Source: Apostichopus japonicus (taxonomy: Eukaryota > Echinodermata > Holothuroidea > Aspidochirotida > Stichopodidae). From it: a stretch of 64,000 bases of DNA. The position numbers and the translations under genes are program-made. Below the pieces are notes generated by a model. The model saw only the letters and a program-made list of their open reading frames with translations, ran no database searches and had not been told where the DNA came from. The stretch lies in the NCBI RefSeq assembly GCF_037975245.1, contig NC_092561.1, positions 6,002,001-6,066,000 of the forward strand, written 5' to 3'. Shown here in pieces: positions 30,216 to 58,660 of this stretch; the first letter of the stretch is position 1, and every line of letters starts with the position of its first letter.

Positions 30216-32330
30216 GCAACAACAACAAAAACATTAAATTAAGCATTTATTTTTAACATAAATAGAAGCAACGTGTGACAAGCCTAAAAGAATATTGTGG
30301 GTAAGTAGATAACTTACTGTTTATTTATATCGCCGAAAAGTTCACATAGCAAATTAAAGTTTTATTTTCAGGATCGGTTGTAGCTGGTGTAACCGGTTCC
30401 AGAAAGCTTCGGTATTGTCTCTTTGGCGATAACGTCAATACCGCATCGGGAATGGAAACGAGTGCGTTTGTGCATATAAATACACGGGCCTTTCGTGAGC
30501 TTACGTTCGCAATTATTTAGTTATTGATGCACAAGTGCATCAAATGCACACGTTTTAAATTATATCTAACCCATACTTTAGGGGTAGAAAAGGTGTGGCT
30601 GGAATGCAGAGGTTATGTAATATGTGGTTGAACAAATTAAAAACAAACGATCTGATGTCCGAGTTTGAAGTGATTGAAATAAAGAAACTATGGCATCCTT
30701 TCCGTTTCATTTTGTTCATTTCATTTATTTCGTATATACAAAAGAACAAGTGGTATAGTATAAACAGGGCACAAGAAAAAAATCGAGCGAGCGACCAAAA
30801 AATAAGGAATAACAAAGAAAGACGGTAACAATTAAGAGTAGAGAAAAATTAACAACCTTACAACTACACCAGCTATCATATATAGCATGAATATTCATTG
30901 TATAATTATATGTATTCCTATAAAATTGTTCGCGGGTAACTTCTCCTGGTGTTAGTAAGACGATCCGAAACATTTAGTATAGAAAAAGTGTACTCACGGT
31001 TTTTCTTCCTCATCTGTTCCCTTCCTTCCCCTCGGACCCCTTACTGTCCCTAGATACTTACCACGGGCCGGCGAAGTAAAAGATCAGTCGGACACCACGA
31101 TTGACAGATAGAATCCGACACAACTTAAAATTGGAAATAAAGATATCCCTTGTAATTATCCAAGGCAAGGGTATTCAAAATGGCGCCGTTTGATGATTGT
31201 GTTCGTTACGGCATATGGGTAGTTCCGTTATGATTTCAATCACTCTGAAAACGCAAGAAATCGATCACGTATTCAGTTCTGAAAAAGACGTGTATTTTGT
31301 TCCGAAAATCTTTTATTTAGTTCCTTTACGAACTGCAGCCTCCGAGAACGTCCGAAAATCCTTATTTAGTTCCGAATCCTTATTAAGTTCCAAGAATCCT
31401 GTGTTAAGTTCCAAAAATCATGTATTTAGTTCCAAAAATCATGTATTTCGAATCCAATCAGCCACCGAGAACGCAAGAAAATCATGTTTTTAGTTCCAAA
31501 TTACGATAATGTGGGTATCGAAAATAAATTTTTAATTGCGAGTTATTCCGGTTTTATTATCTGCCAATGATAAGACATATAATATTGTTCCATTGGAAAC
31601 CGCGATAAGAAACATTTGTCTTTAAATTTATTGGTACTAATATAAAGGTTATTCAGTACCAAACCTGTTGAGCAGATAATCAATTCCGAAATGTGCAAAT
31701 GAAGTTACTATTAATGTCACCCACGGTAGAACCTGTGCAAACAGACAACTTGTTCCACTTTCAACCCCAGTCCCATTGAAGGTATAGTGGTTAGGTTGTC
31801 GTCCGCTCATAAAGTTATATACTGAAAGCCCACAGCTGTACACAGACACGCCTGCGTGTGTAGGCCTATACAGTGCATCGATAGATCAGATAAAACCAGT
31901 CTTTTATCTTTCCGTATGGGAGTATAGCTGCTAATTTGAATAACAATATAGCAGATAAATTCCTGCATACTTTGATGAATAGCTGATGGAACGCACAAGC
32001 TGGTAATGACATTGTGATTATCTGAATCAAGGAGTTATACTAACCCTGCCTGATCTAGCCTAGATGCGCTTAATCCGACCCCTGAAGAAAAGGAGAAATT
32101 GGCCTTTTTTTAACAGACTGAACGAAAACACAAGTTCCGCCGTCAAAGAAAAGAGGACAAAAGAAGAAAGAAAAACATTATAATTTGGTTACGTGTATAT
32201 TCACGAATAGATTGTGAGCGGAAACCAATCCTACATTACCGTATCAGTCCGAATAACTCCATATTTTATTCATCTCGTATCATAGCGGAGTTTTATATCC
32301 TGAAATTCTTGCACAGATTTATTATCTTAT
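30216..32330. other. Gene-poor stretch with a small tandem repeat
   Basis: No supported gene. 31270-31500 holds about ten degenerate copies of a roughly 21-bp unit (TATTTAGTTCCAAAAATCATG). The A-rich, AAATG-type stretch near 30700-30740 resembles the LINE tail at 32335-32360, but there is no coding evidence. Confidence 0.45.
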
Positions 32331-39064: not shown

Positions 39065-39181
39065 ATGGACCCTCCACCGTCGATTGAAAATGTTATGCAA
39101 GCAACAAATGCCTTGTACCATGATCCAGATGTGTCACGGAAGGAGGCAGCGTCCAAATGGCTGCAAGAATTCCAGCAATCG
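39065..39181 (+). CDS. TNPO3: TNPO3 exon 1
   Basis: Residues 1-39 ([10 protein letters not shown] start, ALYHDPD motif, ends EFQQS). Donor GTTTGT is weak; ends in phase 0. Confidence 0.9.
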
Positions 39182-41291
39182 GTTTGTATCGCTTCCAATC
39201 GAGCCCTCTATCCGCCCTTGTTTTCGAAGTATCCACACATGAAACATATGTTAGGCTAGCGTTAAAAAGTGTAGGTTTAACTGCAGTATGGTACTGGCCT
39301 AAACTAAAGCCTAAGCTTTGCCGTGGCCATGCAAGGGTTTACTCTAGGAGTAGGACTACTTTCAGTTGACACTGTCGACACAGCCCTACGACTCGGCAAA
39401 CAATATAACAGTGCAAATGGAAACGGAGGATATTAAACAGAAGAGAAGAGGTACAAACTACTGTAGTGTACTGTATTGGCCTAGGCCTATTTAGCACTGG
39501 TCATACATTTTTACGTAGGCCTAGGCTAGAGGCCTAATGTATGTAAAGCCAAAGGCTATACCTGACACTGAAGTATTGCAGTGGAATTGCCGTCAACTAT
39601 AAAGAGTTCAACCCCCTATCATTATATTGGAAACACAATATTTTTGTTTAAATTAGAGGCTAGACAAATCCAATGTCAATCTGCTGGTTGCCTCCTAATT
39701 CCAACAGTCAGTTACCAGACCTAACGTTTGAAAAGCCTACCAGCTTAGCAACACTCTCATTGGGAGAATACTGTGTAACATGACAATGTGTATAAATTAG
39801 AAATGATTGCTGATTGTAGCTTTTTTAGCCAAAACTTTCTTCGCTCATTTCTTGATTATATATATTTAACAATCCAAAACTTGTAATGTTTGTTTTGGTT
39901 GATTGATTCAGGTGTACGCATGGCAGATCTCGGATCAGCTGCTTCAAATGAAACAAAACCTGGAATCTTGTTACATTGCAGCCCAGACCATGAGGACTAA
40001 GGTAAGTACAAAATTACGTTTAGGAATTTTAAAAAAATCCTTGACAAATCTTGTTGCTCATTGTTTCCTAGAAATGTTGTGATTTGCAGTGCATTGAAGT
40101 TTTCCCAACTCTTGAAAGGCATTGAAAACTCGCCCCAAACCGTGCGCGGCCATCTGTTAAAGTTAACTTTCTGTTGCTTGCAAGTGACATTTTGTTCGTG
40201 TCGCTACAAAATGCAGACAGTAATGAAACGTGATATCTTAATTGTTATCTTTACCTGCCCCTGAGATGTCCATCGCTGTATCCTTTGTATACTGTGCTGT
40301 GGGTATTGACCGCAGCTGTATGTACTGACTGTACACTAGTGTCTAATTACCGACCGTAGCAAGCTGTGTATGTATTTTCTGGGATCGGTGGTGGTGTTCA
40401 CCACTTCTATTACACCTCATTCGAAACTAGGTCAAGTTACCGGCATTAGACGTTTCCAAGGATACCAATTATTGGTATATTAAACAGTTTTTTATTACAA
40501 CCTTTGAGGAAAATTTCCTCACTGGGACATTCAGCCATCTTGTGTGTTCCTTAGCAATGTAGCAAAGCAATGTCTGAGAACAATTTGGAGAGTAAAGACC
40601 TCTAGGAAAGTACTTTTTGAAAACTTCTAGCAATTATTAGCGTGCTATAATTTGGGGCCTATACTGACTACCTTTAAAGTGAGTATTCCAGAGGTTTAGC
40701 TTCGAAACAGCCGAACATCTATAGCAACCAGTGCTTACACTCAGTTTTTTTTTATCTTGGACTGTAACATTTCTAAAAAATTTGTCGAGAGCCACCCTTT
40801 AACTTTCAACTTAGACAGTCATGACAATGACCATTTTTCTTATTTTCCCTCCCCCCCCCCCCCCCCGTTCAGATCCAGTACAGCTTCCACGAACTCCCGG
40901 CAGACTCCCACTCATCTCTCCGTGACTCGATCATCAGTCACATCGAAACCATGACGGATCCACAGTTTCAGATCACAAACACTCAACTCTGCCTCGCTCT
41001 AGCAGATCTAGCACTTCAAATGGTCACCTGGAAAAAGTCAGCAGAGTTCATCATCCAAAAGTGAGTACTTTTCTTGGCCTTAAACATTCTTTCCTTTTTG
41101 TTTTCCCTGTTACTCTGTCTAACAGTCAGTGTTACTATGTAGGGTTGCATTGAATTTCAAATCTGGCTGAATTCAAGAGTTACAGTAAAAGCTTTCAGTT
41201 TTATGCATGTGTGTTCATATACTTTTGATTTCTAGTAGGATGAAAACATTGACCTACAGATGTTCCCAATGTTTTTTTTTGTTTTTTTTTC

Positions 41292-41325
<34 letters not shown>

Positions 41326-44300
41326 TTTATATAATTCTAGAGGGTTTTTTTATTTATTTATTTTATATTTTTTATATATATTTTTTTTAAATATAATTGT
41401 AGATTCAGTAACAATGCAGCCAGTATACCATCTCTCCTGGAACATTGACCTACAGATGTTCCCAATGTTTTTTTTTTAGTTATATTTATTATTTTTTTAT
41501 TATGGTATAATTTTAGATTCAGTAACAATGCAGCCAGTATACCAGCTCTCCTGGAAATCCTCACCGTTCTTCCGGAAGAGGTCCACAGCAAGCATCTCAG
41601 ACTGGGTATGAACAGGAGAGAAGAATTCACACAGGAACTCCGCACTGCAGGGTCCACCATTATAGCTCTCTTGGTATTTTATTCGTTTATTTTGCATGTA
41701 TCCATCGTTTTCATCCAGATAGTTATTAATGCAAAACTCAGAGGAATTGTTAGAAATGAGGCCAAGGGTTGTTTCAGTTCAAAAACAGAACCAAATCACA
41801 AATCTTTGGGATAGACAATGCCGACAAGGCTTCCATATATTTCGGAGTGTCCTAGTTGTTGGGAGCAGTGATATCTCAAAATGGGGGTAATTTCTGATAC
41901 CGGTACAAGCAGACAACATAAATGGTATTCGCTCATGGCGTGTACCCTGTGATAGGTGTGGTACAAGTCACTTTTCTAAACATTAATTGGGCTACAGCAT
42001 CACTGACAGTCTAGATTTTTAATTTTTAACGATGAGAGAATCTACAATACAGGACCGAAGACAAAACCTCAAATTTGAAGTTACAGACAAAGTGAAATGC
42101 ATCCAGACCAGCTGAAATTATTGCCAGCCACAAAATTTTCATAATAATTGTAGGATGATTGATGCAGAATGGAACACGAAACTAATATTGATATGAAGAG
42201 CATGCAAACGAGATTATAAAATATATTTATGGTTATTAGTTTCAGTGAGAATATGCTGGTGGCAGCAGGATATTTCTTTCTTTCTCTTGAGGGGGAGGGG
42301 AGGGGGTGTAGTGGTAATATGAGGTGGCTCATATTTTTTTTGTGGAAAATTCACAGATTAATAAAGATGATCTTTGACCTGACATCATACTTTGATCTGT
42401 CATTCTATGTGATACATTTTTTTACCAGAGGCTTCACTAACCCCTTCACCTTGTTAAGGTTTAATATTTTGATCCTTTTTTCCTCCCCTGCTGCGGCAGA
42501 CGGCTTGCACAGATAACTACGGCAACGACGAGAGATTAATTGGAAAGGTCTTCAAGTGCCTAGGCAGCTGGTTCTCTCTGGGGATAATGCCGAGTGATCC
42601 CATCGCACAGAGCAAACTAATACCACTGTTATTTCAGTGTCTGGTAAGCAGTTTTTTTTTTATCATATTATATCTTCAAATGCCTAGGCAGTTGGTTCTA
42701 CCTTCGGCATCATGCCAAGTGAGCCCATCTCACAGAGCAAACTTATACCTAGCGCTGTTATTTCAGTGTCTGGTAAGCAGTTTTGTTTTTATGATTATTA
42801 TTATTATTTATGGTCACAAAAGGGTTGTTCCACATTTTAGCATTTTGCATAACAAGAGCTCTGGTGGACCCAGTATCTGATTGAAATAGGCGAATTTTGA
42901 TATGTGTCATGTAAGTATCATGGATTGATACTTTGCTCGTTTCTAACTGGCCCGTCATATCAACATGACTTTATTGTTAATAATTGAACGATGCAAGGTT
43001 AATATTCATCAGTTTTGTTGCAAGTTCGGTGTCCGCAGTCGAGATTGTGTACGTTACCACAACATCGTGAGAATTACTCTAATGGTCATCGAGGGATGTG
43101 CTCAGGAATATTTGAGTGCCGGGCAGATTGTGCGGTAGTGTGATCCACACCCTGGGAGAGGGATCTCATGGGTGGGGTACCCCTTCCCCACTGGACAAAT
43201 TTTGAACATGAAGTATACTTAGGTGGTGCTATTTTTCCTATTCTGTGCCATATGTTCTCCCAAATTTTGGTTATGGTAAAATTTGTTAAATTGTCATTAA
43301 AAAAGTGCCGGGCGGAAATGTTTAAAATACTGTTTGTGCTGGGCGGCATTCAGAACTGCTGGGCACAGCCGCCTGGTGCCGCCCAATGTGCGCACATCAC
43401 TGGTCATGAAAGTCCAAAAAGACTTGTAGAATCCTGACTAAGCGCAAGAAGGGCAACGTTCTGATAGGAGAATTATCAGTAATGTTAATAAGTATGATAT
43501 CAGTCTAACTAAGTTGCAAGACGAAATTTAAAAGGTTGAACAGATGATGTTTCCCCAGGTGAAATTCTGAAATTATTCACACTTTATTATAGAGGGGGCA
43601 ATTCCGCAATGGTAGCCATAAAATTTCTCTTCAGTTATTTTTCCAGATCCGTTTTTACCCTAATCTGCAAGACCGTTTCAGATATTGCTACCTCACCTGT
43701 ATCCTGTTTTCTCTTCCTGCCATGAACATGTTTCAGTTTGAAGAACCGGTTTCATTATTTACTGGTCGTTTGATGCACAAACTTTCGTCTAGTGATTGCA
43801 ATCGTTAAATCCCCTCTCTCTTTTCTGTTTCTAGAGTAAACACGATGCACCATCTATGCTACACGAAGCAGCTTCCGATTGCCTATGCGCTGCCCTCTAT
43901 GGAATGGAGGTATGGTTTCTACACTCGCAAGTCATCAACACCCCTCATCAAAACTTTGCCCCTTATAAGAAGCTATGGAATTCTCAAAGCAGATGCTTTA
44001 CTCGACAGTTAAAATTTTCTCTCGCCAAAAATCAAATTTGCTTCCAGAGAAAGCGTTTTGGTAGATAGTTGTGACAATGTGCATTGATTGTTCATTCAAA
44101 TTGCCTCCAGTGGCAGCACAAATGCCCCACAGGTGAATCATTTCTGTAAAAATTATTAGAGACAATACTTATGCCAACCCACCCCCCACCCTCCCTATAC
44201 CCCACTCTTTCACATTGCTTTACTATGTGGAATGTTTCCTTATTCAATTTTCTGTTTAGTGGAATACTTAGAGAAGCATTTTCTCCTTTGTTACTAGAAG

Positions 44301-47300
44301 TCTTTGTGAACAACTCAAACACCTCTCTTACATAAGTCATTTTGAGTGTAATGTGTGATTAACTATGTGGTTAGCCATGGTGTAACCTTCTAGGGTGTTG
44401 TTTGAGCATTGTGGTTAGCCATGGTGGAACCATGTTAGGGTGCTGTTTGAGCATTGTGGTTAGCCATGGTGTAATTATGTTAGGGTGCTGTTTGAGCATT
44501 GTGGTTAGCCATGGTGTAACCATGTTGGGGTGCTGTTTGAGCATTGTGCTTAGCCATGGTGTAACCATCTTAGAGTGCTGTTTGAGCATTGTGCTTAGCC
44601 ATGGTGTAACCATCTTAGGGTGCTGTTTGAGCATTGTGGTGAGCCATGGTGTAACCATGTTAGGGTGCTGTTTGAGCATTGTGGTTAGCCATGGTGTAAC
44701 CATGTTAGGGTGCTGTTTGAGCATTGTGGTAAGCCATGGTGTAACCATGTTGGGGTGCTGTTTGAGCATTGTGGTTAGCCATGGTGTAACCATGTTAGGG
44801 TGCTGTATGAGCATTGTGATTAGCCATGGTGTAACCATGTTAGGGTGCTATTTGAGCATTGTGGTTAGCCATGGTGTAACCATGTTAGGGTGCTGTTTGA
44901 GCATTGTGGTTAGCCATGGTGTAACCATGTTAGGGTGCTGTATGAGCATTGTGGTTAGACATGGTGTAATCATGTTAGGGTGCTGTTTGAGCATTGTGGT
45001 TAGCCATGGTGTAACCATGTTAGGGTGCTGTATGAGCATTGTGGTTAGACATGGTGTAACCATGTTAGGGTGCTGTATGAGCATTGTGGTTAGACATGGT
45101 GTAACCATGTTAGGGTGCTGTATGAGCATTGTGGTTAGCCATGGTGTAACCATGTTAGGGTGCTGTTTGAGCATTCTCTGATTTCTCTTGCAGGACGTCG
45201 AAGATCACATGTCACTGGCTACAACGTTATTTCATGGAATAATGGAGCTGCCACAGGCGTATCACATGACAGTCGCTGAGGATGATGTGGACAAGTAAGT
45301 TTTCATTTTCGACTGTTTTTGGGGGGTCATTTTAAGGACATTTTCTGACCTTTCCAAATATCGGACAATCTTGTACGTTTGCATCGGTTATCTTTGCTTT
45401 ATCCCTTATTGTTTAACCGATTGGTAAGTTTCTTTCAAAGCAGTTTAGTGACCAGAACATATGAGAGATTCCCCAAGGCCTGTGGAGGAATAACTGTTGT
45501 AAATCACCCCAAATGGTGCGTACAAACAACTATGCTAGAATAAGAATACCAGAATGGACTCACACCACATGGTGCAACAAGTACCAGAATGGACTCACTC
45601 CACATGGAGCAACGAGTATCAGAATGGACTCACCACATGGTGCAACGAGTATCAGAATGGACTCACACCACATGGTACATTTGCAATTTTACATTGCGCT
45701 CTTATCATGATAACATGATCATTGCGCCTGAATCAACTTGGGCCCATGTATGGTCATGTAACAATGCCATGCCGTACTATTATTGGAGTTATATATTTTC
45801 TTTATTTTTTATATAATATTTTCAAATCCTGATCATTCTGACTGTATATGTCTTCCTTTTCAAGGTGTGTAAACTACTGTCGAATATTCACAGAATTAGC
45901 TGAGGCCTGTCTGGAGGCCATGGTCAGTACGCCTGGAGAGGTAAGCGACTCATCTCAAAGACTTTTATATAACAATAGATCGAAGCCAAAAAGCCATCCA
46001 CGCTCTCCTTTGGGTCGCAAGCCATCATTTGTCAAAACGGCATTATTCAAAATGTCAAAGCTTGAAGTTTGTAGAAAAATTCGGGACAGAACTTGCTTTG
46101 CCCTTTCGATACGGCTGGTGCAATCTCAAACCTATCAGTTTATTCTCTCATGTGTCAAACCTTTGAAGTTTAAAGTTAATATGTTTTCAGTGGATAATGT
46201 GTATTGATGTCATGATATGTGGTTAACTGTCTGCTATCTTATAAACAGTGTACATGTATATGCAATAGTTGCAGGGTGATGTAAATACCATGCCATCTTA
46301 GGCTCAAAACTGATCGCCAAATTTGTGCAAATCATGTTAGTATATAAAGTCTGAATGTCTCTCTATTCCATGACGTTCTCAAATCTTTTTGCCATCTTTG
46401 TACCCTGTATGGACAGTTAGGAACTGTTCATGGACCCCAGAGATGGAGTATTGCTTGTGACTTCAGCCCCCCTCCCAAACTGTTGAGGCTGGTGTCAGCC
46501 TAAATGTCCAAGATGTAACTTTTAGACTTGTTCGGACTGCCTTAATGGCGAACATCGGTCTTAACAAATGTTGATGTGCCCCTTTTGCTGTCACATACTC
46601 CTTTCCTTTGTCACTAACTCCCTTTGCCCTCAAGGAACCCCACAAATTTTCATGAAGCCCCTTAGGGGTCTCCACGGATACCCAGTTTGAGACAGATGCC
46701 CATTCGATAAGGATGTTTCCTTTTCAATAATTTTTGTTTTGTGTGTGTTCTTCTCACAGAATTTAGGAGATCTACGTATTTTGGACGCACTGGTCGCCTG
46801 CATAAGCGGTCCGTACAGGGAGCTAGCCGACATCACTTTTAACTTTTGGTATCGGCTGTCGGAGGTCATCTATAAGAAGGACGTTAGAATCATCAACGAA
46901 CACTTCAGGCCGTACGTCCAAAGACTGGTGCAAGCGCTGTGTGTTCACTGCCAAATGGAATCAGATCATGTGAGTCACTTTTGCGATCTGAAACGTGAAG
47001 ACGGTTTCATATATTTGGGGGTTTTCCTTTGCAAAGAACAAAATTGGGTCCCTGTTTTCATTTGTGGACATTACCAAGCATGATAAGAGGGGTGGGGTGG
47101 GGATCAGGCAAGGCTACAGCCCTGGGACACCTGGGTATATCAGGCAGCCCAGAAAATATTGGGGGGGGGGGGAAATATGGGATAATGAACAGTTCATTCT
47201 CATTTTCATTATATACTTCTAAAGTAAAGTGAAAACTGAAAACAAAATGGGACCCAGTGACATAATTGTCCCTGGGTCTCTCAATGCCTAAGGTCATTAC

Positions 47301-50300
47301 TATCGTGCTTGTGTTTTTTTAAGGGTTGGTACTTGTGCAATACAGTAAATCCTAAATTAAGAAGGAGCTGGAACCTCTCTGGATATGAAATACTCCAGAT
47401 AAATGTATTGGTAGTTTGCAATCATAATCCCTCCCTCCCTAAAAGGTGGCGTAGGGAACTTCAGATCTTTTCTTTTCTTCGACTGCAGATAAAGGCCCCC
47501 TTACCCCTTCTCCTCCCACTTGAACATGCCATCTTTTAAAGAATGAAGTGCCTTACAATAAAAGTACATGTTTACCTAAAAAATTGGGAAAGTGAAACAG
47601 CAAATCCTGTTTACACAGCTTGAAAAGGATCCCTCCCATTAATTTGTACCCCCATTTCCACAAAATTTGGACAGAGAAATTCATTTCATATTCTATGTTT
47701 GCCTGCTTAATTATATTTTGTTTCTTCAATTCTTCTTTCTCTATTTCTTACGAATGACACACAGGAAGGTATCCCGGATGCCTCTGATGACTTTGGTGAC
47801 TTCAGAGCAAGAGTGACCGAACTGATCAAGGATGTGGTCTTTATCGTGGGTTCTACTTCAAGTTTTAGCCAGGTGAGTTTTCCCTGCCATCAATAATTTG
47901 TCATGTTTGAATTCTTTGGCAACATTCGAATTAATGTCAAAGAGTCGAACCCTGAATTCTGACTTAAACGATAATAAAAAAAATTAAAAATTTATGACAG
48001 TCAGTTATTATATATTTTCATCTTTCTTATTTTTCTATAGATCTTTCAGAATATTACAAATCAACAGACCCCAGCCTGGGAGGTGACGGAGGCTTCATTA
48101 TTCATAATGGCAGCGGTCTCTAGGAATGTTCTGCCGTAAGAAAGATAATCTCTGTTTTGTTCCATTCCAGTTTGTTTGCTCACTTTTCTTTCTTTCTCTC
48201 TTGCTTGGAAGGTGGAGGAGGGGAGGGGAGATTGGGTAATTTATCATTTCTTTAATATGTTGAAATATTTTATCAAGTTGTCCAAAATGTCATTAAACCA
48301 GTATGAAATCCATGAAGTTGTTTTCTATGACGTATTCGGACTCTATATAACTTCAAAACTGTATATACGTGAGAAATCTTCCAAGTATTTCAGTACGGAA
48401 AGACACATTTTCGGTAGAGAGTGGGCTCAAAATCAGGGGGTAAAAACAAAGTTCCTGGTTTATGAGTAGATTTAGTGTTGAGCAAAATGGCTAAAAAGAA
48501 GTAAAGAGGGACGTATTCAAGCATGTCAACGTTCTCACGCATACTTCTCTGAAAATAATTGTCTGTACAGTCGAAGGAGCACTAAATCCAAAGCAAATGT
48601 GGAAAGTGATGAGCTTTAAATGAGTACACAGCTTTAAATATGAGAACTCTTGTACTAGTTGGCACCTACAATAGATCTCGGAAATACTCCAAGCATGATT
48701 AAAAATCTGTTGGTGAAGGAGAACGGTCAAGCTTACCTATGGAAACACAGTCCCCATAGTTCATTCGAGCATTAATAATTTTTTACGTGATAGCATAAAG
48801 TACCCCAAGTACTGCCATTAGGAATCATTCTTGAGTGCACCTAATTAATTGACCAGCCACCAAATGATTATAAACACAAGTGCTATAATTGCCCGCACTT
48901 ATTTCCTGCGTGAAGACAAATTTGGCTTGACCACTGAAATAGTACACTGTCACTGTGTTTAATCATGAATTTGTGCAGCCAAGCATTCAGTATGGCTAGC
49001 ATATACACCAACTCGGGTAGATGTTTTGGGCCAAAAAATGGGGATGCGGTATTTTGTTATAGGCAGGGAAGATCGCATTGGAGCTGATTGAAATCGGCAC
49101 ATTACAATTCTTTTCATGCTCTTTTGCAGAGACGAAAATATCGTTGTTCCCATGGTGATGCAGGCTATCATCAACACGCCGGAAACGTCACACGTGGCCG
49201 TACGCTACACCAGTTTGCGCATGGTAGGAGAGCTGTCCGAATGGCTGCACAAGCACCCTGATTATATCGGTGAGGTTCAAAACCCTGACTGAATTTCATT
49301 CCATTATGCGACAATTGTAAGGTCCACGGCTGCAGTGTCATCACTCAGTGCATTTTTTGACAAGTTACTCCCTTCTCTGTTGCGAATACACACTGCCGCA
49401 AACGGGCAATGGACATCGCTAAGAGAAACCATCAAGCCTGTATTTTTCATCGATAAACCTCTAATCAGCCATATAAATTGGGTCTAAGTGTTTTTGTTTC
49501 TTGTGTTTTTTTTCCGAAAGATCCTGCGTTAAACCTTTTAACGGCTGGACTGAAACATCAGGATTTGGCATCAGTATCGGCTACTTCCATCCAGAAGATT
49601 TGTGAAGAATGCAGAGACCTCATGCATAATCATTTTGAGGGCCTCATGAATATTACAAGAGCCGTAGACGGATTCAAGTTATCTTCAGAGGCAGCCGTCG
49701 GCTTGGTGCAAGGTAAAGATGTGGGGCCTCCCATCCTCATCTCCCCTCCCCCACCACCACCCCACCCCTTTCTAAACATGTATTTACTTGTGGCCCTCTA
49801 ATAGCTCTGTATATGTCTCTCACTTCATTAATCATTTAGCTCATTTGGGGGGATTTTGTTTACCCAATTGGAAGGCCACTTCTGATGGGGAACCACGGAT
49901 TGCATGTGGGTGAAGAACCCACCTTATTTTAAGCTATACAGATCAAAAACCCACAAATATCAGTGTTTTGTTATGCATGGAGAGAGAAGTCGAGCTACAA
50001 TATGAAATCAGCTCCCATAAGCCAGGTCTTTAGTAGTACTTAGACAGCATTTGGAGCGATTGCTGTTTTTGTCTGTCTAAAACTAAAACTGCTCCTTCAA
50101 TGTCTTTTTGACATATATAGATGGGTGAACAGCCTATATGTCTGAAATTTTTTGAAATGATTAATCATACATTTATCATATCCTTTAATGAGGACATGTA
50201 ATAGATTTGTTTGTTTTTTTACCCCTTGTGTACTTGTTTCTTGTTTAGGTGCTGCTTTGGTTTTATCAAGGCTTCCAGCAGAGAAAATCCCAGAAGGGTT

Positions 50301-53300
50301 GAAAGAACTGTCAGCTTGCCAAATAACTCCTTTGTCACAGGTGAGAAACCAATTACAATGGAAGTACAGTATGCTCTACCCTGACTGTGGTTAGTTTTTT
50401 TCTTTTCTACAGCACTCTGCTGTATGTGTGTATGTAAGCAGCAATCTGTGTGGGTAATTTTAATGTGTCGAGCACTCTGTTATATATATGTGTGTTCGTA
50501 TGTGTACAGCACTCTATTGTATGTATGGGTGTGTTCGTTTGTATAAAGCACTCTGTTGTGTGTATGCATTTGTTTGTATGTGTACAGCACTCTGTTGTGT
50601 GTATGCATTTGTTTGTATGTGTACAGCACTCTGTTGTATGTATGCATTTGTTTGTATGTGTACAGCACTCTGTTGTATGTATGCATTTGTTTGTATGTGT
50701 ACAGCACTCTGTTGTATGGTTGTTTGTTCGTATGTGTACAGTACTCTGTTGTATGTATTTGTGTGCATGTATACAGCACTCTGTTATATGTATTTGTTTT
50801 GTTTGTATGCATACAGCACTCTGTTGTATGGTTGTGTTTGTTCGTATGTGTACAGTACTCTGTTGTATGTATTTGTGTGTATGTATACAGCACTCTGTTA
50901 TATGTATTTGTTTTGTTTGTATGCATACAGCACTCTGTTGTATGGTTGTGTTTGTTCGTATGTGTACAGCACTCTGTTGTAAGTATTTGTGTGTATGTAT
51001 ACAGCACTCTGTTATATGTATTTGTTTTGTTTGTATGCATACAGCACTCTGTTGTATGGTTGTGTTTGTTCGTATGTGTACAGTACTCTGTTGTATGTAT
51101 TTGTGTGTATGTAAACAGCACTCTGTTATATATATTCATGTATTTGAATGTATAGATCACTCTGTTATATATGTATTTGTGTGTTTGAATGTATAGAGCA
51201 CTCTGTTATATGTATTTGAGTGTTTTAACCAGAGAAAAGAAAGCCTCTAATATTCTCTTGTGAGCAAAAAGGGGAAAAAATTGGCAATGTACTTGTATAA
51301 CAGCGAGGGTCAGTTACATGACTGCGTATGGGTTTTTGGAAGAGTTATAGGGACAAAAGTTTGCCGTTTTTTATTCATTTGAGGTCTTTCTTTGCTCCGA
51401 TATAGATTCTGAAACAAGACGGGATTGAGGACAAAGAGAATAAGAAAACGTCAGATCCAACGGTTTGGCTGGATAGACTTGCTGCAATATTTAGGTAAGT
51501 ATTTTCAGTTGTAAAATATAATATTTATGTTTAAGTTTTGTGCCAAATATGGTTTCAGTAGTTATAGCAGTGATGTCAATTTTTTTTTTGTGGCTAAAAT
51601 GTGCAAAATAAAGCAGCTGAGTAGTCATTTGTGAAAGTAGGAAAGAAGGGTGAAATAAGAAGTGAGATAATCCTGTTGCTGAACGTAGCAATGTGTACTT
51701 CAGGCATGGGCCCTTTTTCTGCGAATTGGCGGAATTTCCGTGATTTCTTTTCTACCTCGGGAACAAAAACTATTATCCTAACACACTGTAGCATATGCAA
51801 ACTGGAGCCTATACCGCAATTTTTGCAAAGTTTCATGATTTTTTTGAATCCAGGCTCATCCCTGGAACTTTGAACAATGTCATATATAAGCCAAAGATGA
51901 TGATTTAGGTCTGTGTCTCCCTTTCAGACGTGAAGGTCATAGGTCAATACGGGGCAAGCATTGATATGGCTTTTAACGACATGGATCTTATACCCTCCAT
52001 GGTTTGTTGCTGATGGAAGCCCATAGCCATCTTTCCCAAACTATTTCCCTGGGGTGCCCATGTCGTGATATCCTTGGGCCAGCCGTGACCCCCGTAAATT
52101 TCTTTACGGCCTAAAATCACCCGATATGTACTCCCCGGTGATGGACGATTTTAACTGCAAGTTGACTCCATCAGTAGATCACAATTAATGGCACATTGTC
52201 TGAAAGTTTAATTTTAATAAAAAAAAATGGTTTCTCAAACGCACATTCATCAAACTTGGGGAAGCAAATCACTGTGTCACAGGAAGTTTATCGTCACACC
52301 CCCATCTGAAACATTGTTCTCGCATCATGTTCAGTATTTTCCCACACCCAGGATCCCGACAGACCGAGGCATATCTGGGCTTGCATCGTCTTATGTTCAC
52401 CCCGCGTGGTTAGTTTAGTGGTATTTTAAACATGGAATACGATCGTATCAAAAGAGACGTGTATATTTATTTATTTTTTTCCCCGTCCCGTCAGGTACAC
52501 CACTCTGTCGGTGTCGAACGGGCAACCGCACCCCTGCGCCGCCTTACTGCAGAGTATATGGCCTGTCCTATCTGATATTCTGACTAAGTACCAGACGGAC
52601 ATCCGAATCGTAGAAAGATGGTGCCGCTGTTTGAGGTTTGCCATCAGGACGATCAGCAAGAGCTCAAACTCTCTCTTATCGCCGCTCGTCCTTCAGGTGA
52701 GGTCCGCAGATGGAGGTTTTCGATTACCTTCTCGTTCCAGTAATTAGTCGACACTTCGATCGATAGGCTGTGCACCAATTTTGTAGATAAGCTAAAGGCT
52801 CTCTTTCGGTACTCATCACATGGTGACTTGTGTCTCAATGTCTGTCACTCACTAAAACTTGTATTTTTAGGAGAATTACTTCATGCTCCAGAAAACGTGC
52901 AATCATTTGATAAATTGGAGCTAATCTAGGGGAAATTTGTTTGATGGTCTTCAGAGATGAACAAGTTTCTGTTCGGACGACCAATATCAGCTTTGGTGGT
53001 GGTCCGATGTTTACATCAACTCCAGACTGAATTTGTAACTTAATACCCCCAAATAAGTAGATAAAGTAAAATAAGATAAGAAATTGGTTTAACCCTCCAT
53101 CACTTCAGAGATACTGGAAATTAAACAAAAAGAGTGGCAGGCCGCATTTTACCCACCCCGATGGGGAGTTTTACTGACCCAAAGCTGGTGTTCGAGCCAC
53201 CAAACCTACACATCAAACTACAGTACATGTATTGTCCATTCTTTGTTTGATTTTTCTTTAGTTTCATTTTTTTGGACAACTAAATTTGCAGTTTAGACAA

Positions 53301-56300
53301 CAAAATCAAAGGTTGTCCCAAGGTGACAACCAGGAGAGGCCCTTAAAGTTTTGCCCCGTAATCATTCAAATTACATAATTATTGTGCTAAGTCTCCGATA
53401 TGTCAATTAAATTAAACAACTGTCCTAAATGTGTTATAGGTTTAGGGTAATTATTTCATATCTGCTATAAATATAAATCTATACAGAATTTCTTGATGTC
53501 TTTAAGCATATATGCAGTAAGACTTTTTGAAACAAACTAAATGGCAAAAATAAACTTTGTACAAAAAGTGTAAATTCTGTGAGCCAGTCTTGGGGTTGAG
53601 GGGTAACTGTTGCATTGCTGGTACAAATAACTGGCTTGAAGAGTGACGAGTAAGCACGAACCGTGGAAATATTCATGACTCTTTTCGATTGTCGTCAACA
53701 GATGGTGAGTATCTACGAGAATCAGAAGCATTCCTGTTTTCTCTACCTTGGAAGTATACTAGTGGACGAGTACGGGAAGGACCCCACCTGTAAGACAGGT
53801 CTCCTAGAAATGTTGAAGGTAAAGCACCGTAATGGTCTTCTTTTCTTTTTTTTTTGCTTTTTCTTTTTTTATAGCGCTTTATACCAGCGATAGGTCTCAA
53901 AGCGCTTTACATACGTTATATTACCCCTGGTCAATGATAACCTGTCCCAGAGACAATCCCTCCAGTCGGCAGCAGTTATATACTGCGCTCAATGACAAGT
54001 TACCTCACAGGTACCCATTTAACCCATGGGTGGAGAGAGGCATGTGAGATAAAGCATCTTGCCCAAGGACACCACGTAATGAACTAGGCAGGAATCGAAC
54101 CAGCAATCATTGGATCACGAGTCTGACGCCTTAGCCAATTGGCCACCACGGTCTCTCTCTTTTATTCTGAGAAACTTGCAAAGCCTTTAGGACCAAAATC
54201 CTCATCATAGGGATCGAAACGTCTGTTCCTCTAACTTTACCTACGTGGGCTCTTTGCAGTAGATAAGCAGATTTTGAAGAGAGTTTCTCTTCCCCTCTTT
54301 CCACAAAACTTTCCATGACAATGGTTTATGCCCCCAAGGTTGGTTATCCCGACATGACCAGTGGTGCCTGTAGGGTGTGGACATGGTACTTGTGAATTCT
54401 CAGGATGTTTGTCAAATTTCGTCTTTGGCATCTTCATTTTGGCTATCAGAGTGAAATGCTTGGCAGCTAGGGTTTTATATAAACCATTTGGGTGCTCCAA
54501 ATTGGTGAGCTTTTTAACCTGTTTAACCCCAATACAGAAAATGGGCAAATCACAATAGAGAACATGGATTGTATTGTGCTTTGCAGAAACATTTGATCTT
54601 TCCACCTCTCATTGCTTCTCGTGCCACTCTGTGGGACTCGCAGACGGTTTTCAAGTCATTTCTCTTTTTCTCTAATGACCAAATATGGTAATCTCTAGGT
54701 TACGACAAATTCTATACAAAAGGAAATTAGTTACTGAAACCTTCAAGGATGTGATGAGCTGGATAAACCTGTTTTAATTTAAAAAGAAACCTGACCATGT
54801 GTGTCCTTGTTTTTGGTTTCTTTTCTCATTGCCATGGCATCGTTTTGAAGGTTTTTCATTGACCGGCTCAGATCCTGCTTTAAAAATTCATGTGGTTTGG
54901 ATTCTTACAATCACTTTTAGAGAGGTCAGTTGATGGGAAAAGTTGGTCTTCAGTTGTTACTGGTATTTCTTTTTTCTCATGGAAGAACACTTAGAGTGAC
55001 ATGAGGATCAACTTCCCACACATTAGTTGATGTATTGATTCTTGGTGGTTATGTTCATAACCTCTACCGGCAGAAATATTGCAAAAAGCCTTATGTTTTT
55101 GGGCTACTGCCAAATGGCAAACTCCACTTGCAATAAGCCAGTAGATAAGCCTGAATTTCGAGGCCTATGTTGTCTTTATAGTGTATCAAAGGACTAAACA
55201 AGTCAGCCGAAGGGGATAGATGTGGGAAGTTGAAGTAAACTTTAGAAATGCTTCGATTTCCGGTGGATGCCTAAGGGTCGAAATCCACAGCTTTTTTTTT
55301 CAAAAAGATATCTTGAAATGTTGGAATACAATCTCTCTTCTTTTTTCTTTTTTTTGTCGTTCTCTCTACTTGCACAGGCTTTCATCACACCCACCTATAA
55401 AGTGTTGGAAGAAGATAACGGACTACGAAACCATCCAGACACAGTAGATGATTTCTTTAGGTTGTGCATTAGGTAAGAGCTGCGAGCATCTCAAGCATAG
55501 CCATCCAGACACAGTAGATGATTTCTTTAGGTTGTGCATTAGGTAAGAGCTGCGAGCATTTCAAGCATACCCATCCAGACACAGTAGATGATTTCTTTAG
55601 GTTGTGCATTAGGTAAGAGCTGCAAGCATTCCAAGCATACCCATCCAGACACAGTAGATGATTTCTCTAGATTGTGCTTTAGGTAAGAGCTGCGAGCATT
55701 TCAAGCATACCCATCCAGTCACAGTAGATGATTTCTTTAGGTTGTGCATTAGGTAAGAGCTGCAAGCATTCCAAGCATACCCATCCAGACACAGTAGATG
55801 ATTTCTTAAGGGTTGTGCATTAGGTAAGAGCTGCGAGCATTTCAAGCATACCCATCCAGACACAGTAGATGATTTCTCTAGATTGTGCTTTAGGTAAGAG
55901 CTGCGAGCATTTCAAGCATACCCATCCAGTCACAGTAGATGATTTCTTTAGGTTGTGCATTAGGTAAGAGCTGCAAGCATTCCAAGCATACCCATCCAGA
56001 CACAGTAGATGATTTCTTAAGGGTTGTGCATTAGGTAAGAGCTGCAAGCATTTCAAGCATACCCATCCAGACACAGTAGATGATTTCTTTAGGTTGTGCA
56101 TTAGGTAAGAGCTGCGAGCATTTCAAGCATAATTCCATTTGTTGTTAATCATACTTGGATGAAACCTCTACACACCAGGGGTGGGCATTAAATGGGTTTT
56201 TTTTCCATCTTCTTTTGTCCTTAATTTTTTGGGGGGGGGGGGGGAGGAAGGGGAGAGCATGATCTGTTCACCTGTCGTATGGTAGATGATTAAACCAATC

Positions 56301-58660
56301 TGAAAACTACCGTTGGATTTCAAAACAACCAAAACTTGTCGTTGCGATGACAATTAATATACAAATATACTGAGTTTGGGCAAATTACAAGGTCTAGGTA
56401 CTGAAAGTAAAGGTTTAAAAGCACAGATCCCTGTCTGTATCATCAAACGCATGAATATATTTTCGCATCCCTTTTCTGTGTGTGTCATAACTTGAGTGAT
56501 GCTATCAACATAAAATATAAAACCCGTTGGAAAAAAATGAGTGCTGACTCTAGAGATGATTCAGTTTGGTTCTGATTTTACGTAGATTTTTGCAGAGATG
56601 TCCGTTGGAGTTCCTGCAGTGCGACATCTTCCCGTCCATCGTCCAGTGTGGGATGGCCGGATTAAAAGTGGACCATAGGGACGCCAACGGGTCCGTCGCC
56701 AAGTTCTTCATAGAATTTGTCAAGTGCGGCAACGAAAACTGGGTAAGCGAGGAGGAGTCTTTTGATGACGTTCTCAAATTTTTGCCGAGAAAGTTATTGT
56801 TTAGAACAGGATTCCTAGTAGTGATCTACAGGGTTTAACCCTGTGCTATACAAATTGAGGCTATCCCTGATCTCAGGGTTTAACCCAGTGCTATACAAAC
56901 TGAGGCTATCCCTGATCTCAGGGTTTAACCCTGTGCTATGCAAACTGAGGCTATCCCTCATCTTAGTCGGTGGGCAATTCCTGCATTGCCATTTTCAGGT
57001 CTGGATTTATTGGTTCAAATCCTGTTCCCGTGAAATGTTAATTGTCGTTTTATTTTTTATTTATAATTTCCCAGTCATTATTCCACTGTTCATTTTACTC
57101 TCTTTAGACTTTATTTATATTTTCTACCTTTACTTAGTCATGTGTTCACCTGTAAGACTGAATGTTGGCTTACCCTGTCAAGTACAACTAGGTTCACATG
57201 TATGGCCCCACTTCTCAGATTTGTGGCTTCTCAAATTCAGATTAAATAGCTGCCACTGCTGTGATAGTAGTGGGTTCACCTCATGTATTCACCTCTCACA
57301 TTCATACGTTCACCTGTTTGAAATCATTGGTTCACTTGTCCCTGTTTTATACAGTCACATCTTCAATTTATCATGGACTTGACAAGTCAGATTTAAATAG
57401 CTTCCACTGCTGTGATAGTAGTGGGTTCACCTCATAATGTATTCACCTCTCACATTCATTAGTTCGACCTGTTTGAGCCATCAGTTCACCTGCCAGATTT
57501 AATACAGTCATCTGTTCAACCCATCATGGGGTCCACAAGTCAGATTTTTAAAGTGTCAGTTTCCTTCTAGGCAATCTCTTCTTTTTCATGTTACCCTGAA
57601 CTGTCATTGCAAAAGTTTCCATGAGTTCTCCTGTCAGTTTTTAATGAGTTACCTTGCTTGATTCAGTTTTAATGTTCAGTGCTGCCACCTCTCCCTCCCC
57701 TTTCCAATTTTTTAGTCAAAATGTCAGAAAATTGCCACCTCAGTCATGCTTACCTCAGATCAGATGCAACAGTCTTCTTCCTTTTTTTGTCCCCCGCACA
57801 TTCAGGAATCCTCCGAGTTTGACAGTCGGAAAGCGTGCGTCCAGAGAATCTTGGAAGGCAACGGAGAGAAGATGGTGAAAGGAATATTAGACGCTTGCGT
57901 CTTCCACCTGCCAACTTACATGGTTCCAGACCACGGAGAGGTCCTCTTTGAACTCTTAAAATTCAGCCGAGAGGTAAGACCGTAACAGAACAGCAGGAGG
58001 GTAGAACATGGCAGTTTGACCGCGCTTGCACTGAATTTTGCATTTTATTATAATAAATAGGATTCTGCACTGTTGGAGTGACAATTTTAAAAAATAATGG
58101 CATTTTGAAAGGCACGTTGTATTCAATTACATTGAAACCATGCATATCCAGCACGTCCAGCCAAAGAATGAGAAAATAAGGTCCACAATCTTTCACGACC
58201 TGAGATCAGAGCGAAGTTCCTCGAGAAGTCTTGTGAAATCTTTGAAGAGAACCTCCAAAAAAAAAGAGAGACGTTTGCATCTTGTTAAAATGGAGACTTG
58301 GTTTTTCACTGGATTAGAGATGAATTCTGAGGTTTTGATAAACTTAACATAAATATGAGGAAGTTTTTGTTCATCTTCAAAAGATCAATCTGTCGTGCAT
58401 AATACTTTATGTATTAAATATTGCTCTTGCACGATGATTACGAACCCCCTGGATCTTTGTTTTATTTAAACTTTGCATCACACTTTCAGTCCCTGCTGGC
58501 GTGGCTGGAAACGGCTCTCCGCGAGCTCCCAGTGTCGACAGGCGGAACGTTAGGCGCCACCGTAGAGCAGATGGCAGCGTTCCACAGCTCGGTGTCCACC
58601 GCACAACAGGACATCAACGTCACATACGCTCTGCGAGACTTCACCAGGCTCTTCAGGTAG
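39065..58660 (+). CDS. TNPO3: Transportin-3, nuclear import receptor for SR proteins (21 exons)
   Basis: Importin-beta family karyopherin. In animals it binds phosphorylated RS domains of SR splicing factors in the cytoplasm and releases them in the nucleus on RanGTP. Coding exons: 39065-39181, 39912-40001, 40873-41060, 41517-41673, 42500-42643, 43835-43909, 45194-45294, 45865-45940, 46760-46969, 47765-47872, 48041-48135, 49130-49269, 49521-49712, 50249-50340, 51406-51494, 52495-52696, 53702-53818, 55378-55472, 56586-56742, 57806-57973, 58490-58660. All introns are GT-AG and phases join to 927 codons plus TAG; human TNPO3 is about 923. Recognised segments: ALYHDPD (N-terminus), [40 protein letters not shown], the Arg-rich helix [15 protein letters not shown] that binds cargo in the human protein, [32 protein letters not shown] and the C-terminal [14 protein letters not shown] repeats are expected throughout. 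The start was chosen because it gives the family's N-terminal length. UTRs are not defined. Confidence 0.96.
39912..40001 (+). CDS. TNPO3: TNPO3 exon 2
   Basis: Residues 40-69 ([11 protein letters not shown] ... AAQTMRTK). Acceptor GATTCAG, donor GTAAGT, phase 0. Confidence 0.95.
40873..41060 (+). CDS. TNPO3: TNPO3 exon 3
   Basis: Residues 70-132 ([19 protein letters not shown] ... ADLALQM ...). Acceptor after a long C run (CCGTTCAG), donor GTGAGT; two bases carried over. Confidence 0.95.
41245..41440 (+). pseudogene. Partial tandem copy of intron 3 end and exon 4 start
   Basis: The 3' splice site and first ~40 bases of exon 4 (AGATTCAGTAACAATGCAGC) appear at 41401-41440, ahead of the real exon at 41517. 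The 'aacattgacctacagatgtt' block that precedes each copy starts at 41245 and 41441. In the exon frame the copy hits TGA shortly after its end, and it has no donor. It is a decoy acceptor. Confidence 0.85.
41517..41673 (+). CDS. TNPO3: TNPO3 exon 4
   Basis: Residues 132-184 ([20 protein letters not shown] ... STIIALL). Acceptor ATTTTAG, donor GTATTT, phase 0. Confidence 0.93.
42500..42643 (+). CDS. TNPO3: TNPO3 exon 5
   Basis: Residues 185-232 ([12 protein letters not shown], then [13 protein letters not shown], ends LIPLLFQCL). Acceptor GCGGCAG, donor GTAAGC, phase 0. Confidence 0.95.
42673..42790 (+). pseudogene. Degenerate partial copy of exon 5 with its donor
   Basis: 124 bp downstream of the matching part of exon 5. 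It keeps TGCCTAGGCAGTTGGTTCT and the end TTATTTCAGTGTCTGGTAAG, including an intact donor. Single-base and short insertions break the frame, and no acceptor precedes it. Confidence 0.85.
43090..43400. mobile_element. Degenerate hAT-like element in TNPO3 intron 5
   Basis: Flanked by the direct repeat TGGTCAT (43083-43089 and 43401-43407). Ends GAGGGATGTGCTCA and TGTGCGCACATCAC are imperfect inverted repeats. Internal 'gccgggcgg'/'ctgggcggc' motifs repeat. No coding capacity. Confidence 0.45.
43835..43909 (+). CDS. TNPO3: TNPO3 exon 6
   Basis: Residues 233-257 ([20 protein letters not shown] ...). Acceptor GTTTCTAG, donor GTATGG, phase 0. Confidence 0.93.
44366..45176. repeat. 45-bp minisatellite in TNPO3 intron 6
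   Basis: About 18 copies of a 45-bp unit (GTGTAACCATGTTAGGGTGC then TGTTTGAGCATTGTGGTTAG and CCATG), ending 17 bases before the exon 7 acceptor region. Because 45 is a multiple of three, both strands show long repetitive open frames, which are not genes. Confidence 0.95.
45194..45294 (+). CDS. TNPO3: TNPO3 exon 7
   Basis: Residues 258-291 ([20 protein letters not shown] ... DDVDK). Acceptor TCTTGCAG, donor GTAAGT; two bases carried over. Confidence 0.95.
45548..45680. repeat. Short minisatellite in intron 7
   Basis: Four copies of a roughly 30-35-bp unit containing CAGAATGGACTCACACCACA and TGGTGCAAC. Confidence 0.85.
45865..45940 (+). CDS. TNPO3: TNPO3 exon 8
   Basis: Residues 291-316 ([18 protein letters not shown] ...). 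Acceptor TTTTCAAG, donor GTAAGC, phase 0. Confidence 0.94.
46760..46969 (+). CDS. TNPO3: TNPO3 exon 9
   Basis: Residues 317-386 ([14 protein letters not shown] ... [16 protein letters not shown] ... CQMESDH). Acceptor TTCTCACAG, donor GTGAGT, phase 0. Confidence 0.95.
47765..47872 (+). CDS. TNPO3: TNPO3 exon 10
   Basis: Residues 387-422 ([17 protein letters not shown] ...). Acceptor ACACACAG, donor GTGAGT, phase 0. Confidence 0.95.
48041..48135 (+). CDS. TNPO3: TNPO3 exon 11
   Basis: Residues 423-454 ([17 protein letters not shown]). Acceptor TTTCTATAG, donor GTAAGA; two bases carried over. Confidence 0.95.
49130..49269 (+). CDS. TNPO3: TNPO3 exon 12
   Basis: Residues 454-501 ([20 protein letters not shown] ...). 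Acceptor CTTTTGCAG, donor GTGAGG; one base carried over. Confidence 0.95.
49521..49712 (+). CDS. TNPO3: TNPO3 exon 13
   Basis: Residues 501-565 ([20 protein letters not shown] ... [11 protein letters not shown]). Acceptor CCGAAAG, donor GTAAAG; one base carried over. Confidence 0.95.
50249..50340 (+). CDS. TNPO3: TNPO3 exon 14
   Basis: Residues 565-595 ([19 protein letters not shown] ...). Acceptor TTGTTTAG, donor GTGAGA, phase 0. Confidence 0.94.
50410..51215. repeat. 39-43-bp minisatellite in TNPO3 intron 14
   Basis: About 20 copies built on GTGTACAGCACTCTGTTGTA plus a TGTATGTATTTG-type spacer. Between about 50811 and 51153 three units form a 114-bp higher-order repeat present three times (starts at 50811, 50925, 51039). 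Long cysteine-rich open frames on both strands are artefacts. Confidence 0.95.
51406..51494 (+). CDS. TNPO3: TNPO3 exon 15
   Basis: Residues 596-625 ([20 protein letters not shown], then LDRLAAIFR). Acceptor GATATAG, donor GTAAGT; two bases carried over. Confidence 0.93.
52495..52696 (+). CDS. TNPO3: TNPO3 exon 16
   Basis: Residues 625-692. Contains the Arg-rich segment [15 protein letters not shown], which in human TNPO3 contacts phosphorylated RS cargo. Acceptor CCCGTCAG, donor GTGAGG, phase 0. Confidence 0.95.
53702..53818 (+). CDS. TNPO3: TNPO3 exon 17
   Basis: Residues 693-731 ([16 protein letters not shown] core). Acceptor GTCAACAG, donor GTAAAG, phase 0. Confidence 0.95.
53840..54156 (-). 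mobile_element. tRNA-derived SINE in TNPO3 intron 17
   Basis: On the minus strand an A box-like TGGCCAATTGG (54145-54135) and a B box GGTTCGATTCC (54101-54091) head the element. The body includes the widespread marine-invertebrate segment TTGCCCAAGGACACC (plus sense). An A-rich tail follows (T-rich on +, 53840-53870). It begins about 20 bases after the exon 17 donor. Age and family not determined. Confidence 0.7.
54157..54330 (+). mobile_element. Penelope-like tail fragment, degenerate
   Basis: Contains GGGATCGAAACGTC, then CTCTAACTTTAC and AGTAGATAAGCAG. These are arranged like the GGATTGAAACGTC ... GTGGATAAGCAG segment at 22011-22075. The hammerhead core is not intact here. Confidence 0.35.
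55378..55472 (+). CDS. TNPO3: TNPO3 exon 18
   Basis: Residues 732-763 ([20 protein letters not shown] ... DDFFRLCIR). Acceptor TTGCACAG, donor GTAAGA; two bases carried over. Its last ~42 bases and donor are the first unit of the 70-bp tandem array that follows. Confidence 0.95.
55431..56131. repeat. 70-bp tandem array built from the end of exon 18 and its donor
   Basis: Ten copies start at 55431, 55501, 55571, 55641, 55711, 55781, 55852, 55922, 55992 and 56063. Each contains CCATCCAGACACAGTAGATG (exon 18 coding sequence, one base changed in two copies), then GCATTAG or GCTTTAG, and an identical donor AG|GTAAGAGCTG. Copies 4-6 and 7-9 share the same private changes, so a three-unit block was duplicated again. 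Confidence 0.97.
56586..56742 (+). CDS. TNPO3: TNPO3 exon 19
   Basis: Residues 763-815 ([14 protein letters not shown] ... [15 protein letters not shown] ...). Acceptor TTACGTAG, donor GTAAGC, phase 0. Confidence 0.95.
56829..56965. repeat. Three 45-bp repeats in intron 19
   Basis: CAGGGTTTAACCCTGTGCTA plus CAAATTGAGGCTATCCCTGA, three copies with small changes. Each begins with a short AGGGTTTAACCCT palindrome. Confidence 0.9.
57236..57480. repeat. Direct duplication (about 150 bp) in intron 19
   Basis: CCACTGCTGTGATAGTAGTG and the following GGGTTCACCTCA occur near 57255 and 57405, with similar downstream sequence (ATTCACCTCTCACATTCAT). Confidence 0.8.
57806..57973 (+). CDS. TNPO3: TNPO3 exon 20
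   Basis: Residues 816-871 ([20 protein letters not shown] ... [20 protein letters not shown]). Acceptor ACATTCAG, donor GTAAGA, phase 0. Confidence 0.95.
58490..58660 (+). CDS. TNPO3: TNPO3 exon 21 (terminal)
   Basis: Residues 872-927 and stop TAG ([14 protein letters not shown] ... [10 protein letters not shown]). Acceptor CTTTCAG. Confidence 0.96.
   Translation, partial: SLLAWLETALRELPVSTGGTLGATVEQMAAFHSSVSTAQQDINVTYALRDFTRLFR

What the first reader, a model, noticed from the sequence alone, without database searches (positions are those of the whole stretch)
55431..56131. A coding-exon end and its splice donor amplified into a ten-copy minisatellite
The last ~42 coding bases of TNPO3 exon 18 together with the donor GTAAGAGCTG and some intron form a 70-bp unit repeated ten times. 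All ten donors are identical. Only the first gives the normal protein. Use of any later donor would read AGG TAA, an in-frame stop right at the first exon/intron border. Copies 4-6 and 7-9 show a second round of amplification.
Basis: partly seen in the sequence, partly recalled or inferred. Interest (0 to 1): 0.75.

Follow-up and report, generated by a model that had tools for sequence, protein, structure and literature searches.

The report
Ten-copy splice-donor minisatellite in TNPO3
In a gene of what is very probably a sea cucumber, the end of one protein-coding segment and its splicing signal are repeated ten times in a row, and similar arrays sit at several other splicing signals in the same genome, so splicing here must often pick the right signal among close copies.

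Summary
Window 55431-56132 holds ten 70/71-bp copies, each with the last 42 bases of coding exon 18 (of 21) of an intact TNPO3 gene plus 28 intron bases. All ten donors read TAG|GTAAGA. Copies 4-6 and 7-9 are a duplicated triplet. Donors 2-10 used alone stop the protein after 763 of 927 residues.

It is not a one-off. The same gene has two more tandem duplications across one splice site (exon 4 acceptor, exon 5 donor). In a panel of TNPO3, chaperonin and myosin exons of this genome, 7 of 76 donor sites are locally duplicated, six of them in arrays of about 7-39 copies, against 1 of 76 acceptor sites (Fisher p=0.063).

The kind is known: "mirages", minisatellite-like duplications of exon/intron boundaries, described in amphioxus with normal splicing. 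By its assembly statistics this genome is very probably the sea cucumber Apostichopus japonicus. My searches listed no case outside amphioxus.

Most likely: a minisatellite tolerated because the first donor is used. The invariance of the ten donors is no evidence of selection (chance 0.195). Splicing inside the array (AG|GT) would also restore the normal mRNA; untested.

The parts
39065..58660 (+). TNPO3 gene, 21 coding exons, 927 aa, intact
   Evidence: exon model with GT/AG at all 20 joins and no internal stop; 1073 bits to human transportin-3, PDB 4c0p
55378..55472 (+). coding exon 18 (95 bp)
   Evidence: the peptide across the 18/19 join aligns without gap to transportin-3
55431..56132 (+). 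ten-copy 70/71-bp array: 42 bases of exon 18 end plus donor within 28 intron bases
55473..55478 (+). first donor GTAAGA, the one that gives the full protein
55543..56110 (+). nine decoy donors at 55543, 55613, 55683, 55753, 55824, 55894, 55964, 56035, 56105
   Evidence: same donor score, 10.75, as the first; each gives a stop after 763 aa
55641..56062 (+). duplicated triplet: copies 4-6 (55641-55851) and 7-9 (55852-56062)
   Evidence: 0, 0 and 1 differences between paired copies
56586..56742 (+). coding exon 19, acceptor ttttacgtag
42549..42801 (+). second donor-spanning tandem duplication, exon 5 end plus donor, two copies, 84% alike; the second donor (42773) would add 43 aa in frame
41357..41556 (+). 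acceptor-spanning duplication: decoy copy 41357-41442 upstream of the real exon 4 acceptor region 41468-41556, 84% alike (89% over a shorter stretch); use of the decoy stops the protein after 146 aa

Best explanation
A mirage-type minisatellite: a short tandem duplication laid across the exon 18 donor, then amplified by slippage or unequal exchange in at least two rounds. It is tolerated because copy 1 stays in the exon and its donor is the one used; copies 2-10 lie in intron 18 as decoys and are removed. Shown: the array, the intact gene, the effect of each donor on the reading frame, similar arrays at other donors of this genome. Inferred: use of donor 1, through exon definition (95 nt against 165-727 nt) and because it is transcribed first; the mechanism of amplification; near-neutrality.
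For: Array and units. Intact, full-length TNPO3 with donor 1, a stop with donors 2-10. Two further splice-site-spanning duplications in the same gene at 84% identity, so probably older. Arrays holding a donor at five other exons of the panel: four exons of two chaperonin genes and a myosin exon, plus a kinase exon outside the panel. Donor invariance is compatible with drift: P = 0.195. In amphioxus the same architecture leaves regular splicing intact by RT-PCR, as passages of PMC3087553 state.
Against: No RNA was available. The nine decoys are as strong as the real donor, so site strength alone does not predict the choice. Arrays cross donors more often than random placement in introns gives: 4 of 12 without the given array, 1.16 expected, P = 0.020. 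So something beyond randomly placed minisatellites may be at work. With at least 9 exonic bases demanded it is 3 of 12, P = 0.069.
Confidence: 0.8

Rival explanations
1. Self-erasing array. Each repeated border is AG|GT, so a later copy's ATTAG can act as an acceptor and its GTAAG at once as a new donor. Splicing donor 1 to a later AG (recursive), or removing the array as a nested intron after use of donor 10, gives the same normal mRNA, so decoy use repairs itself.
For: Copies 2, 3, 4, 5, 7, 8 and 10 score as acceptors at the 95.9-98.1 percentile of intronic AGs, the real exon 19 acceptor at 95.6; they stay above it with 67 or 48 training acceptors. Any such path leaves the reading frame unchanged. 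The AGGT duplication model of intron gain has been reproduced experimentally in ATP2A2, as a passage of PMC4974935 reports.
Against: Copies 6 and 9 score lower, at the 79.8 percentile with the TNPO3 matrix and 87.0 and 89.9 with the other two. The intron is 1113 nt, while ratchet points are described for long introns (start of the abstract of PMC8605326). The acceptor matrices rest on 19-67 sites; no branch point was tested. Three of the other six duplicated donors in the panel lack AG before GT: exon 5 (CTG), C17 18675 (CTG) and C17 20253 (GTG).
Confidence: 0.12
2. A regulatory poison switch: use of donors 2-10 gives a premature stop and nonsense-mediated decay, letting the cell tune TNPO3, which imports SR splicing factors (recalled).
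For: All nine decoys give the same immediate stop and are intact.
Against: Intactness is compatible with chance (P = 0.195). Stops soon after the first donor are also read at array-bearing exons of two unrelated chaperonin genes, while the second donor of exon 5 stays in frame. No conservation could be tested.
Confidence: 0.05
3. Assembly artefact.
For: Tandem arrays can be mis-sized in assemblies; one amphioxus mirage appears aberrantly assembled in the draft (PMC3087553 passage).
Against: Copies differ in a structured way and the assembly that it seems to be was made from HiFi reads (PMC10344927). Similar arrays recur at other exons.
Confidence: 0.03

Closest known systems
Mirages of amphioxus (Adh3, globins BflGb6 and BflGb9, troponin C, PGBD5)
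   Same: Minisatellite-like tandem repeats across an exon/intron boundary, at donor or acceptor, with AG/GT kept in many units; units of 10-72 bp in Adh3 and 150-160 bp in globins (passages of PMC3087553 and PMC3902484)
   Different: Here the genome is very probably a sea cucumber, not a cephalochordate. In my panel donors are hit more than acceptors, 7 of 76 against 1 of 76. RNA and length variation were not tested.
Human IFI6 (6-16) minisatellite with multiple splice donors (Turri 1995)
   Same: A minisatellite provides several donors in one transcript; two downstream repeat units serve as donors (passage of PMC4526556). The 1995 paper itself is not held; I saw only its title in reference lists.
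   Different: In IFI6 the alternative donors are used and give protein isoforms; here all nine decoys give a stop.
Intron gain by tandem duplication of AGGT segments (Rogers model; ATP2A1; fission yeast SPOG_01682)
   Same: Repeated AG|GT whose splicing restores the old reading frame (passages of PMC4974935)
   Different: There a new intron arises inside an exon; here the duplicated step is the donor of an existing intron.
Recursive splicing at ratchet points
   Same: Juxtaposed acceptor and donor, AG|GTAAG
   Different: Described for long introns (start of abstract); here 1113 nt, and the sites arose by duplication of an exon end.

Membership tests
mirage (boundary-spanning minisatellite) | tandem repeats that span an exon/intron boundary | tested here: met
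   42 exonic plus 28 intronic bases per unit, ten copies
mirage (boundary-spanning minisatellite) | AG/GT splice signals kept in many units | tested here: met
   10 of 10 units TAG|GTAAGA
mirage (boundary-spanning minisatellite) | both donor and acceptor boundaries can be duplicated | tested here: met
   donors of exons 5 and 18, acceptor of exon 4 in the same gene
mirage (boundary-spanning minisatellite) | regular splicing of the mRNA is not disturbed | not testable with these tools
   no RNA at hand; only an intact reading frame through donor 1
mirage (boundary-spanning minisatellite) | length or somatic instability | not testable with these tools
   one assembly only; the duplicated triplet shows past change of length
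mirage (boundary-spanning minisatellite) | host group on record is cephalochordates (a fact of record, not part of the definition) | tested here: inconclusive
   assembly size and contig lengths fit Apostichopus japonicus, which would be a new host phylum; no gene-based check was answered
recursive splice site | AG|GTAAG with acceptor-grade sequence upstream | tested here: met
   7 of 9 decoy copies score at or above the real exon 19 acceptor, 2 of 9 below
recursive splice site | lies in a long intron | tested here: not met
   intron 18 is 1113 nt
recursive splice site | splicing intermediates in RNA | not testable with these tools
   no RNA

The most novel reading that the evidence does not exclude
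In this echinoderm genome minisatellites grow preferentially at splice donors, not acceptors. The asymmetry would be a footprint of splicing as it happens on the growing transcript: a decoy donor is made after the real one is already committed, while a decoy acceptor is made before the real one, so only donor arrays are harmless. On top of this, arrays with AG|GT units could erase themselves by splicing inside the array. Roughly one donor in ten would carry such a natural decoy experiment.
Probability: 0.25. Interest if true: 0.75.

Novelty: new member of a known kind. Interest (0 to 1): 0.52.

Why it matters
How a cell picks one donor among equal ones is an old question, tested mostly with made-up duplications (recalled). 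Here nature offers ten identical donors 70 bases apart in a conserved gene, and several more arrays in other conserved genes. RNA from one animal would show directly which donor wins and whether arrays splice within themselves. It would also move mirages, known to me only from amphioxus in the papers held, to a second deuterostome phylum, which bears on how tandem duplication feeds intron growth and intron gain.

Tried and rejected
Selection on the donors: rejected as evidence, since a 10-base stretch without variation has P = 0.195. Unit as a dispersed element: a search with 55300-55500 listed no match elsewhere, but the tool's counts are lower bounds.

Survey, first pass: 60 of 60 fetched loci, some overlapping (30 of 134 kinase matches, 30 of 57 chaperonin matches); 9 have a local duplicate of 15 or more coding bases. 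Five of these (L030, L033, L034, L035, L038) I dropped, since they look like one repeated kinase-like family with weak repeats at its edges, not exon borders. The other four are L025, L042, L046 and L060. Second pass: 73 exons, 6 donor-crossing, 1 acceptor-crossing, 1 internal. One donor case (C17, exon at 12777) was wrong: its real donor is near 12959 and the array starts behind it. I corrected this and used the corrected borders. One array that begins 2 bases before a donor (C17, 20253) was then counted; dropping it gives 6 of 76, and dropping the given exon 18 site gives 6 of 75. One exon-end copy that stops 3 bases short of the donor (C21, 7780-7953) was not counted. Of the 57 chaperonin matches 52 entered the panel: three of an intronless copy, one outside the fetched stretch and one long match were left out. 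Only the first 9 of 70 myosin matches were used. Borders of chaperonin and myosin exons were chosen by a TNPO3-trained matrix and mostly not checked by eye. All panel statistics were made after seeing the first hits.

Species check by mitochondrial or ferritin genes: not completed. Papers: ten searches were answered; four bore on this question, and no listed paper reports a boundary minisatellite in an echinoderm, as far as titles and abstract starts show. Listings were capped (one search showed 15 of 48, 8 of 14). The original Adh and IFI6 papers are not held.

Full report
What is there. TRF reports a 70-bp array of 10.0 copies at 55431-56131. Cut by hand, ten units run from 55431 to 56132; copies 6 and 9 carry one extra base. 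A genome search with 55300-55500 lists ten matches, all at this array; the tool calls such counts lower bounds.

The gene. I built 21 coding exons, 39065-58660, all 20 joins with GT and AG, no internal stop, 927 aa. The product matches human transportin-3 at 1073 bits over residues 4-927, and the stretch across exons 18 and 19 aligns without gap. Exon 18 is 55378-55472. Each unit therefore holds 42 exonic and 28 intronic bases.

The donors. All ten read TAG|GTAAGA and score 10.75, at or above all 1048 other GTs scored in the other introns. With donor 1 the protein is complete. With any of donors 2-10 it stops after 763 residues. Ten of 71 columns vary: six in the exonic and four in the intronic part (one search printed 6 of 44 and 4 of 27 with the border one base off; with the border it is 6 of 43 and 4 of 28). 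So the exonic part of the decoys is not better kept than the intronic part. The donor stretch would be spared by chance with P = 0.195. Copies 4, 5, 6 and 7, 8, 9 pair with 0, 0 and 1 differences: a later duplication of a triplet.

More of the same in this gene. Exon 5 has its last 95 bases and its donor duplicated once, 42549-42801, 84% alike; the second donor would add 43 residues in frame. Exon 4 has its acceptor and first 40 bases duplicated upstream, 84% alike; use of the decoy stops the protein after 146 residues. Each duplication crosses one splice site, and the site that yields the conserved protein is the one facing the exon body. That last point follows from the protein being conserved and is no separate proof.

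More of the same in the genome. I chose kinase and chaperonin families before knowing what they would show. I then completed the chaperonin gene regions, marked exons, corrected borders by eye where an array was seen, and added the first nine of 70 myosin matches. In the final test 7 of 76 donor sites have a local copy with at least 2 exonic and 10 intronic bases, against 1 of 76 acceptor sites; Fisher p = 0.063, binomial p = 0.070. Without the given site it is 6 of 75. The seven are TNPO3 exons 5 (two copies) and 18 (ten), four chaperonin exons on C17 (38.7 and 36.5 copies) and C21 (7.1 and 11.8), and a myosin exon (11.5). Donor signals, the real one included, are mostly kept in three of the chaperonin arrays: 36 GTGAGT in 36.5 copies, 11 GTATGT in 11.8, 7 GTATCA in 7.1. 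In the fourth, C17 at 18675, a rough pattern found ten decoys out of about 38, all worn to GTAGTA. The myosin array keeps CTAG|GTATGC or close forms in the copies printed. A kinase exon (L025) shows a further 31-bp array with GTAAGT, outside the panel.

Chance placement. In 41 introns with both ends known there are 13 TRF arrays of period 25 or more; 5 cross a donor where random placement gives 1.2, P = 0.0045, and none crosses an acceptor where 1.2 are expected, which is itself not unusual, P = 0.27 (TRF does not see the exon 4 duplication as such, and the C17 18675 array lies in an intron not in this set). Without the array I was given: 4 of 12, P = 0.020; chaperonin genes alone: 3 of 6, P = 0.014; with at least 9 exonic bases asked for: 3 of 12, P = 0.069. 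So a pull towards donors is suggested, not shown.

Whose genome. The assembly has 671,581,487 bases in 35 contigs. Apostichopus japonicus, by PMC10344927 (passages), has 671.60 Mb, 34 scaffolds, 23 chromosomes of 18.21-46.02 Mb, scaffold N50 29,647,521 and N90 20,397,903. Contigs here of 29,643,483 (C4), 20,392,820 (C18) and 18,203,763 (C23) come close to these. The taxon is an echinoderm. A gene-based check did not complete, so the species is an inference.

What is known. PMC3087553 (passages) describes minisatellite-like duplications of intron/exon boundaries, called mirages, in amphioxus globins and, by citation, Adh3, at both kinds of boundary, with many AG/GT signals kept, with length and somatic instability, and with normal splicing by RT-PCR. 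PMC3902484 (passage) adds PGBD5 and troponin C. The array here meets the structural features. The searches that bear on this list no case outside amphioxus; listings were capped and the library holds open papers only.

How it works, most likely. A tandem duplication across the donor leaves copy 1 in place, with exon 18 at its 95 nt, and puts all later copies into the intron. Donor 1 is transcribed first and gives the short exon, which both exon definition and early commitment favour (established ideas, recalled, not tested here). The decoys cost little and drift. A further property follows from the sequence: since the repeated step is AG|GT, any splice from one copy to a later one removes whole units, and the reading frame is unchanged. 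Seven of the nine decoy copies score at or above the true exon 19 acceptor, two below. Whether the cell uses this is open.

Verdict. A real boundary minisatellite, a new member of the mirage kind in what is probably a new phylum for it, with a hint that donors are favoured.

Noticed in passing
23661-28993: A 43-bp minisatellite of about 123 copies, with related arrays up to about 30213, next to an exon that looks like a guanylate cyclase (30350-30520, recalled resemblance).
   Followed up: no
44366-45175: A 45-bp array of 18 copies in TNPO3 intron 6 that ends 18 bases before the exon 7 acceptor without touching it.
   Followed up: partly
42644-42772: Use of the second exon 5 donor would add 43 residues in frame without a stop; an alternative TNPO3 form is possible.
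   Followed up: partly
L046, L048, L050, L079-L082 (C17 chaperonin gene): This region of 23.8 kb holds 17 tandem arrays of period 15 or more, two of them at donors with 36-39 copies; the other eight chaperonin regions hold 0-7.
   Followed up: partly
L030, L033-L036, L038: Kinase-like matches of about 230 codons in one frame at many similar places on C1, C7, C21 and C22, possibly a recently spread family.
   Followed up: no
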